A stretch of DNA of 64,000 nucleotides from Chroococcidiopsis sp. CCMEE 29 (GTDB lineage: Bacteria > Cyanobacteriota > Cyanobacteriia > Cyanobacteriales > Chroococcidiopsidaceae): contig NZ_CP083761.1 of NCBI RefSeq assembly GCF_023558375.1, positions 2,536,001 to 2,600,000 on the forward strand, written 5' to 3'. Position 1 is the first letter of the stretch. Every line of letters begins with the position of its first letter. A program made the translations under genes and the position numbers. Of the stretch, positions 35,530 through 36,800 are shown piece by piece. The notes beneath the pieces were generated by a model. That model did no database searches and had not been told where the DNA came from. It saw only the letters and a list, made by a program, of their open reading frames with translations.

Positions 35530-35569
35530 AGATCAAGTTGTGGAGTGTTTTTCAGGTGTTGACAAAAGA

Positions 35570-35655
35570 GGGGCGAGGGGCGAGGGGATTTTAGATTTTA
35601 GATTTTGGATTTTGGATTTTGGATTAGACTCTTGCTTCCCCTGCTCCCCGTGCTT
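35570..35655. repeat. GGGGCGA tract, TTTTGGA heptamers and CCTGCTCCCC words
   Basis: GAGGGGCGAGGGG, then TTTTAGA/TTTTGGA heptamers (about 35588-35625), then CTTGCTTCCCCTGCTCCCC: the same composite order as at 7303 and 38629. Lies upstream of the GT2 gene. Confidence 0.85.
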
Positions 35656-35704
35656 CGTTAGCACTTGTACTCCACCGAACGATAGATGTATAATTACTTA
35701 GCAA

Positions 35705-35893
35705 TGAAGGGGAGTAGCTGCTGGCAGCCGATTTTGCTAGCCATCTGAATCAACATACTGGCGATAATAGCCTGGTTCAGGTGACAAGTATTAGGTACAG
35801 AGTCCAGGAAACGATAATTAACTGGGCTGAAATACCGCCAACTTGGGAGTGAGACCTTCACTAAGTTCACAACAAGATGTGAGCTTGGTGAAG
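35705..35893 (+). ncRNA. yybP-ykoY manganese riboswitch
   Basis: Consensus elements of the Mn2+ riboswitch are visible: P1 5' strand TGAAGG (35705-35710) running into GGGGAGTAG (35709-35717), the conserved loop TCAACATACTG (about 35750-35760), an internal hairpin, and GAGACCTTCA (35851-35860), whose CCTTCA closes P1. The 3' strand of P1 is shared with a second hairpin, 35856-35870 paired with 35879-35893, whose right arm GGTGAAG precedes the GTG start (35898). Mn2+ binding should keep P1 and free the ribosome binding region, turning the exporter on. The gene downstream is a GDT1-type manganese exporter, as expected. Confidence 0.9.
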
Positions 35894-35897
35894 TCTA

Positions 35898-36578
35898 GTG
35901 GCTCTCATCAAGCTCATGCGACCAAAGTTAGTCAATTCTGAGGAGCTTGATGAAGTGCTGACTGCTTTCACTGCCGGTTTATTACTAATTGCGGTTTCAG
36001 AGTTAGGGGATAAAACATTTTTTATCGCCGCAATTTTAGCGATGCGTCACTCACGGCGGCTGGTATTTGCGGGTGCGATAGTGGCTCTGGCTGGGATGAC
36101 AGTAATTTCTGTGCTTGTGGGACAGGTGGCTACTCTGTTACCAGAGGTTTATATTCTTTATGCCGAAATCGTTTTGTTTATTGGCTTCGGTATCAAGCTG
36201 CTGTATGAAGCGAGCCGGATGCCTGCAAACACCTGTGATGCAGAAGTAGTCCAAGAAGCAAAAGCTGTGGTGGAGAAGGCTGAATTTAAATTGCCCAAAG
36301 AACAAACTGCGGTAACGATTTGTTTAGAAGCGTTTGTCTTAACATTTTTGGCAGAATGGGGCGATCGCACTCAAATTGCTACTGTTGCCTTGGCAGCACG
36401 TTATAACCCGGTTGGAGTAACGCTCGGTGCAATTGTTGGTCATGCTCTTTGTGCAGCGATCGCCGTTGTCGGAGGGCGAATACTAGCAGGTCGTATTTCT
36501 GAGCGCACACTCACTTTTGCTGGAGGATTCCTCTTTCTCGCCTTCGGTGTCTTCGCCGCACTACGAGAAAATCTATAA
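35898..36578 (+). CDS. mnx: TMEM165/GDT1 family Mn2+ exporter
   Basis: Six-helix UPF0016 protein with the two signature motifs, SELGDKTFF in the first half and LAEWGDRTQIA in the second, separated by a charged cytosolic loop (ASRMPANTCDAEVVQEAKAVVEKA). The Synechocystis homologue moves manganese out of the cytoplasm, into the thylakoid lumen or periplasm, which matters for photosystem II supply and Mn tolerance. GTG 35898 is the start best placed behind GGTGAAG; an ATG eight codons later is possible. Controlled by the upstream Mn riboswitch. Confidence 0.92.
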   Translation: MALIKLMRPKLVNSEELDEVLTAFTAGLLLIAVSELGDKTFFIAAILAMRHSRRLVFAGAIVALAGMTVISVLVGQVATLLPEVYILYAEIVLFIGFGIKLLYEASRMPANTCDAEVVQEAKAVVEKAEFKLPKEQTAVTICLEAFVLTFLAEWGDRTQIATVALAARYNPVGVTLGAIVGHALCAAIAVVGGRILAGRISERTLTFAGGFLFLAFGVFAALRENL

Positions 36579-36604
36579 GTGAGGAGTTAGGGTCTAGGGG
36601 TAAG

Positions 36605-36800
36605 GGGGTTTTAGATTTTGGAGCCACTTGCGTGCGGGGGTTCCCCCCGCCCTTGCAAAGTAGCGTGATTTTGGATTACACTCTTGCTCCCCCTGCTGCC
36701 CCTAATCCCCACTTCGTGGGGGCCCCGAGTTCCCCTGCTTCCCCTGCTCCTTCAGCCTTCATCCTTTCCCTGCTTCCCCTGCTTTTCCTGCGGTGCAGGG
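36605..36800. repeat. Composite repeat with a nested hairpin module
   Basis: A TTTTAGATTTTGGA heptamer run (36609-36622) is interrupted by a roughly 46-bp block holding the hairpin GCGGGGG-tt-CCCCCCGC (36634-36650), then resumes as TTTTGGATTACACTC (36669). The CCCCAC-ttc-GTGGGG hairpin module (about 36706-36721) and CCTGCTTCCCC words follow and run into the 3' end of the TPR gene. Confidence 0.9.

What the first reader, a model, noticed from the sequence alone, without database searches (positions are those of the whole stretch)
35705..35900. Complete two-state fold of a manganese riboswitch readable in the sequence
P1 of the yybP-ykoY aptamer (35705-35710 with 35855-35860) competes for bases 35856-35860 with a 15-bp hairpin (35856-35870 with 35879-35893) whose right arm includes the GGTGAAG just before the GTG start. 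This gives a translational ON switch when Mn2+ binds, rather than a terminator, since no T-run follows the hairpin. The gene downstream is a GDT1-type Mn exporter.
Basis: partly seen in the sequence, partly recalled or inferred. Interest (0 to 1): 0.65.

Follow-up and report, generated by a model that had tools for sequence, protein, structure and literature searches.

The report
Manganese riboswitch controlling a cyanobacterial exporter
A cyanobacterium carries, in front of its manganese exporter gene, an RNA switch that probably turns on protein synthesis when manganese is in excess; the sensor is of a known kind, but the switching part is a four-segment relay conserved among cyanobacteria, and the curated RNA database threshold misses it.

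Summary
The aptamer is real. Window 35704-35861 is a yybP-ykoY (Mn2+) aptamer upstream of a GDT1-family Mn exporter (mnx). Rfam RF00080 scores it below threshold (21.7 vs 45 bits), as it does every cyanobacterial copy tested (0 of 146 genomes pass). A model built here finds it in 49 of 292 Cyanobacteriota genomes. Its 32 pairs covary.

In 104 distinct leaders translation starts at the position of window GTG 35955 (SD 35940-35945), about 60 nt beyond the hairpin, so the hairpin cannot hide the SD. A four-segment relay does: seg1 35855-35872, seg2 35877-35894, seg3 35900-35918, seg4 35942-35960 (SD and start). P1:seg1, 1:2, 2:3 and 3:4 exclude one another in a chain. OFF is 1:2 plus 3:4; ON is P1 plus 2:3. 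Cognate segments pair better than swapped ones (0/5000 permutations, each helix). Forcing P1 before seg4 is transcribed flips the platform in 103/104 leaders (shuffled control 16/330). At full-length equilibrium only 17/104 flip, so the choice must be co-transcriptional. Mn response was not tested. Known aptamer class, new variant of expression platform.

The parts
35665..35694 (+). probable promoter: TTGTAC (35665-35670), 18-nt spacer, TATAAT (35689-35694); transcript would begin about 35701-35703, at the foot of P1
   Evidence: read in sequence; a loose -10-like box (TANNNT) lies 4-26 nt upstream of P1 in 102/104 leaders versus 50/104 after shuffling. The strict consensus scan did not report it.
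35704..35861 (+). Mn2+ (yybP-ykoY) aptamer, four-way junction P1.1, P1.2, P2, P3, P4
   Evidence: RF00080 sub-threshold; own model R1 93.7 bits, window included in its training set; 32 pairs, 96% paired, 16 pairs with changes on both sides over 26 sequences
35705..35710 (+). P1.1 5' strand TGAAGG
35709..35718 (+). L1 core motif GGGGAGTAGC
   Evidence: identical to RF00080 consensus
35717..35719 (+). P1.2 5' strand (pairs 35848-35850); G-C/G-U/A-U covariation
35750..35759 (+). L3 core motif TCAACATACT
   Evidence: identical to RF00080 consensus
35742..35783 (+). P3 stem-loop (35742-35752 with 35773-35783)
   Evidence: 6 of 11 pairs with double changes
35855..35872 (+). segment 1: P1.1 3' strand (35855-35860) plus left arm of hairpin 1:2
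35877..35894 (+). segment 2: pairs with segment 1 (OFF) or segment 3 (ON)
35900..35918 (+). segment 3: pairs with segment 2 (ON) or segment 4 (OFF)
35940..35945 (+). Shine-Dalgarno GAGGAG
   Evidence: AGGAG-type SD at the same place in the relatives
35942..35960 (+). segment 4: SD, spacer and start codon, sequestered by segment 3 (OFF)
   Evidence: overlaps SD in 103/104 leaders and reaches the start codon in 95
35955..36578 (+). GDT1/UPF0016 (Mnx-type) Mn exporter gene, true start GTG 35955
   Evidence: PF01169; conserved N-terminus VLTAFTAGLLL in 80 relatives

Best explanation
A cyanobacterial Mn2+ riboswitch (yybP-ykoY aptamer) that turns on translation of an Mnx-type GDT1 Mn exporter when cytoplasmic Mn2+ is high. 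Without Mn2+, segment 1 (35855-35872) is free and pairs with segment 2 (35877-35894); segment 3 (35900-35918) is then left to pair with segment 4 (35942-35960), hiding the Shine-Dalgarno GAGGAG and the GTG 35955: OFF. With Mn2+, the docked aptamer holds P1.1 (35705-35710 with 35855-35860); the shortened 1:2 helix loses segment 2 to segment 3, the 2:3 helix forms, and segment 4 with the SD stays free: ON. The choice is predicted to be made while the transcript end is between about 35914 and 35951. Shown here: aptamer, gene, start site, and the pairing and matched variation of 1:2, 2:3 and 3:4. Inferred: Mn2+ as ligand (from the family), ON polarity in the cell, kinetic decision.
For: Aptamer: covariation, core motifs identical to RF00080, present upstream of 80/80 nearest homologues, hits in 49/292 Cyanobacteriota genomes. 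Start: same column in 104 distinct leaders, most with no other usable start. Relay: seg2:seg3 complementarity median z -4.4 and seg3:seg4 median z -2.3 against shuffles; cognate pairs stronger than swapped ones, 0/5000 permutations reach it for each helix; a seg2 variant with an extra nucleotide goes with a matching extra nucleotide in seg3 in most leaders; triple matched changes, A-T-A to G-C-G in L104 and T-A-T to C-G-C in L125. Switching: before seg4 is made, 1:2 dominates in 97/104; forcing P1 gives 2:3 in 103/104, against 16/330 with the segment 3 region shuffled. In Synechocystis the mnx transcript does not change under Mn excess (PMC11649195), which is compatible with control of translation, though whether that strain has this element was not checked.
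Against: At full length and equilibrium, forcing P1 leaves the SD sequestered in most leaders (2:3 dominant in only 17/104; mean SD accessibility unchanged, 0.23 to 0.24), so the model needs a kinetic decision. The seg3:seg4 signal for the window alone is weak against shuffles (p = 0.06), and for the paralogue there is none (p = 0.5). Seg2 and seg4 resemble each other, so part of the cross-complementarity follows from shared motifs. Swap and shuffle tests do not correct for relatedness. In the gap-free subset seg2 varies little, so matched triples are few. The RF00080 gathering threshold is not reached. No Mn2+ binding or expression data.
Confidence: 0.75

Rival explanations
1. One reading: a single switch in which hairpin 35856-35870/35879-35893 itself hides the ribosome site of a GTG at 35898.
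For: The hairpin exists, competes with P1, and its right arm carries GGTGAAG 4 nt before a GTG.
Against: The start is at the 35955 column in 104 leaders, with an AGGAG-type SD; seg2 ends 49-73 nt upstream of the start in all of them; the 35898 start and the extra N-terminus are not conserved.
Confidence: 0.05
2. The 1:2 hairpin acts (also) as a transcription terminator or pause in some lineages, giving dual or transcriptional control.
For: Many Nostocales have TCTTTT after segment 2 (longest T-run of 4 in 45/104 and 5-6 in 6/104). Deep-branching relatives in the phylum have a similarly placed hairpin of the P1 3' strand followed by a T-run (L130 CCTTCACCA...TGGTGAAGGCTTTTTT).
Against: The window has no T-run there (longest 1) and no terminator is called; none is called in the Nostoc-type leader L014 either. 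Conservation of 2:3 and 3:4 would be unexplained.
Confidence: 0.12
3. The aptamer only modulates; the 3:4 hairpin is a constitutive or protein- or ribosome-opened structure and Mn2+ changes little.
For: Equilibrium folding keeps the 1:2-type platform with P1 formed in 87/104 full-length leaders.
Against: Would not explain conserved and co-varying 2:3 pairing, or that forcing P1 before seg4 exists flips 103/104 leaders but only 5% of shuffled controls.
Confidence: 0.1

Closest known systems
yybP-ykoY Mn2+ riboswitch (Rfam RF00080), e.g. Lactococcus lactis yoaB and Xanthomonas oryzae aptamers (PMC6754395, PMC11087558)
   Same: L1 GGGGAGUAGC and L3 UCAACAUACU motifs, four-way junction, P1.1 as switch helix stabilised by Mn2+, gene for Mn export
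   Different: Below the Rfam gathering score; expression platform is not a terminator but a translational relay
E. coli mntP and alx translational Mn2+ riboswitches (PMC11647493, PMC9603457)
   Same: Mn2+ ON switch that frees the ribosome-binding site of a Mn exporter
   Different: Different gene families (MntP; Alx is TerC family). Those papers describe OFF and ON conformers without the relay seen here, but the original E. coli study (Dambach 2015) was not held, so the platforms could not be compared in detail. Rho termination is part of mntP control; cyanobacteria lack Rho (general knowledge, not tested).
Anti-sequestor translational riboswitches such as E. coli thiM (from general knowledge)
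   Same: Alternative helices decide whether the SD is paired
   Different: thiM is an OFF switch with one intermediate helix; here two intermediates (1:2 and 2:3) lie between P1 and the SD helix, which gives ON polarity
ManS/ManR two-component control of Mn in cyanobacteria (PMC11649195, PMC7020235)
   Same: Mn homeostasis in cyanobacteria
   Different: Protein-based, senses external Mn, represses the importer mntCAB; not an RNA sensor of Mn excess

Membership tests
yybP-ykoY / Manganese riboswitch (RF00080) | Rfam covariance model match at or above gathering score (45 bits); a curator's annotation cut-off rather than a biological property | tested here: not met
   21.7 bits, E 6e-4; no cyanobacterial genome of 146 passes, though E. 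coli and B. subtilis controls do
yybP-ykoY / Manganese riboswitch (RF00080) | Conserved metal-core loops L1 (GGGGAGUAG) and L3 (UCAACAUAC) | tested here: met
   Exact in the window, near-invariant in relatives
yybP-ykoY / Manganese riboswitch (RF00080) | Four-way junction with P1.1, P1.2, P2, P3 and P4 supported by covariation | tested here: met
   96% paired, 16 pairs with double changes, shuffles 0/500
yybP-ykoY / Manganese riboswitch (RF00080) | Located in the leader of a Mn-homeostasis gene | tested here: met
   GDT1; a GDT1-type frame follows in every one of the 127 leaders parsed
yybP-ykoY / Manganese riboswitch (RF00080) | Binds Mn2+ selectively | not testable with these tools
   needs in-line probing or similar
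Translational ON riboswitch | Ligand-free fold hides SD | tested here: met
   predicted 1:2 plus 3:4 fold; seg4 overlaps SD in 103/104
Translational ON riboswitch | Ligand-bound fold frees SD | tested here: inconclusive
   2:3 wins before seg4 is transcribed (103/104) but in only 17/104 at full-length equilibrium
GDT1/UPF0016 Mn exporter | Pfam GDT1 match and E-x-G-D-(K/R)-(S/T) motifs | tested here: met
   PF01169 2.8e-47; ELGDKT and EWGDRT in the translation

The most novel reading that the evidence does not exclude
The main sensor of Mn excess in a large part of the cyanobacteria is an uncatalogued branch of the Mn2+ riboswitch with a four-segment translational relay that must be decided during transcription: a terminator-type hairpin of the ancestral element appears to have been re-used as the first half of an SD-sequestering relay.
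Probability: 0.5. Interest if true: 0.6.

Novelty: new variant of a known kind. Interest (0 to 1): 0.47.

Why it matters
Mn is the metal of photosynthetic water splitting, and Mnx is the central defence against Mn excess in Synechocystis. Yet a 2024 study states that only the ManSR system is known to regulate Mn homeostasis in cyanobacteria (PMC11649195). A riboswitch on mnx would supply the missing sensor of excess. It is missed by standard annotation because cyanobacterial copies fall below the Rfam threshold (0/146 genomes). The relay is also a compact natural case of a co-transcriptionally decided translational ON switch, directly testable by compensatory mutation. Limit to the claim: a review citing earlier surveys already reports the riboswitch at 328 of 333 UPF0016 genes (PMC7380456), so the association of riboswitch and gene family is not new.

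Tried and rejected
Rfam at gathering threshold: no hits, so a lineage-specific model was built (R1). Equilibrium folding of full-length leaders with P1 forced did not show SD release; kept as evidence against a purely thermodynamic switch and followed by transcript-length scans. MAFFT alignment of the whole platform misplaced indels in segments 2 and 3, so alignment-free swap tests were used, plus a gap-free subset. Terminator model: no T-run or terminator call in the window. The consensus promoter scan did not report the TATAAT. The miRNA hits are far below their cut-offs and were taken as chance. Literature searches for a cyanobacterial Mn riboswitch found none.

Full report
What is there. 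A GDT1/UPF0016 gene (PF01169, E 2.8e-47) is preceded by a leader with the Mn2+ riboswitch motifs GGGGAGTAGC and TCAACATACT. RF00080 matches at 21.7 bits against a gathering score of 45, so the standard annotation is silent.

Aptamer. Eighty homologues of the protein were fetched; all carry the aptamer upstream. A 26-sequence alignment with the known architecture gives 96% paired cells and 16 of 32 pairs with changes on both sides, including P1.1 (G-C, G-U, A-U) and P1.2 (G-C, G-U, A-U); no shuffle reaches this and slid registers collapse. The model R1 built from it scores the window at 93.7 bits (the window is one of the training sequences) and finds 49 of 292 Cyanobacteriota genomes, in 32 of 116 genera. 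RF00080 itself puts 0 of 146 such genomes over its cut-off while E. coli and B. subtilis controls pass. The own genome holds a second copy in front of a second GDT1 gene.

Start codon. In the relatives translation starts at one column, corresponding to window GTG 35955, about 9 nt after an AGGAG-type SD; most have no other in-frame start. GTG 35898 is therefore not the start, and GGTGAAG is not the SD. Segment 2 ends 49-73 nt upstream of the start in 104 distinct leaders, too far to hide the ribosome site by itself.

Relay. Behind P1 lie four segments: seg1 35855-35872, seg2 35877-35894, seg3 35900-35918, seg4 35942-35960 (SD and start). For each of 104 leaders the best partner of seg1, then of seg2, then of seg3 was located; seg4 overlaps the SD in 103 of 104. 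Complementarity of seg2 to the seg3 region exceeds shuffles (median z -4.4; window 0 of 200 shuffles), that of seg3 to the SD region more weakly (median z -2.3; window p 0.06). Over 57 diverse leaders, cognate segments pair better than segments swapped between species for 1:2, 2:3 and 3:4 (0 of 5000 permutations each); these tests do not correct for relatedness. Seg2 forms with and without an extra nucleotide mostly go with matching seg3 forms (34 without with CTCA, 15 with it with CTTCA, 16 of a third type with CTCCA), with exceptions, chiefly a Nostoc group of 15. Matched changes in all three segments occur in L104 and L125. Divergent families that start with ATG and pair seg3 over the ATG itself keep the scheme with different letters (L107, L114, L117, L120, L122, L123), although their seg2:seg3 excess over shuffles is modest (p 0.03-0.15).

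How it switches. Before seg4 is transcribed, free leaders fold 1:2 (97/104); forcing P1 gives 2:3 in 103/104. With the region after seg2 shuffled this happens in 16 of 330 trials, against 55 of 55 real leaders tested. For the window, 2:3 wins with P1 formed while the transcript end is between about 35914 and 35951. Once seg4 is complete, equilibrium folding prefers the shortened 1:2 plus 3:4 even with P1 in 87 of 104 leaders, and mean SD accessibility does not rise. So either the decision is kinetic, with the ribosome capturing the ON state, or the energy model misjudges the docked aptamer. This is the main weakness. Known features of the family favour a kinetic view: Mn2+ and RNA polymerase pausing just behind P1.1 cooperate in L. 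lactis (PMC11087558).

Known and not known. Mn2+ stabilises P1.1 in this family (PMC6754395), and E. coli mntP is a translational Mn2+ ON switch (PMC11647493). A review states that 328 of 333 UPF0016 genes screened are under yybP-ykoY (PMC7380456), so riboswitch plus GDT1 is known. For cyanobacteria a 2024 paper says only ManSR is known to act in Mn regulation, and mnx mRNA did not change under Mn excess in Synechocystis (PMC11649195); no paper found describes a cyanobacterial Mn riboswitch (open-access library only). Not all mnx genes have it: of 20 R1-negative genomes, three have a close Mnx-type gene and none of those three carries the element.

Verdict. New variant of a known kind.

Noticed in passing
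G000:C1:2974517-2975350 (-), L001/L003: Second riboswitch plus GDT1 gene in the same genome (66% identical protein), with the same four-segment layout but a weaker seg3:seg4 helix.
   Followed up: partly
G000:C1:1740365-1741018 (-), L004/L005: Two adjacent half-size GDT1 matches without a riboswitch model match, resembling the Hmx1/2-type Mn importers described in Synechocystis.
   Followed up: no
L129-L133: Deep-branching relatives in the phylum have Mn-type aptamers followed by terminator-like hairpins with T-runs; L130 precedes a TerC gene and L129 a Na/Ca exchanger-family gene.
   Followed up: partly
L042: Record labelled as a Tatlockia sp. metagenome bin carries a typical cyanobacterial mnx with its riboswitch; probably a misbinned contig.
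   Followed up: no
L123: Second copy in genome G170: the GDT1 frame meets a stop soon after ELGDKTFF; possible decayed duplicate.
   Followed up: no
window 35568-35662 and 36581-36791: Related imperfect repeats (such as GATTTTGGATTA.ACTCTTGCT.CCCCTGCT) flank the riboswitch-mnx unit on both sides.
   Followed up: no
leaders L006-L128 as a set: About half of the leaders keep a run of four or more T after the 1:2 hairpin, possibly a trace of an ancestral terminator.
   Followed up: partly
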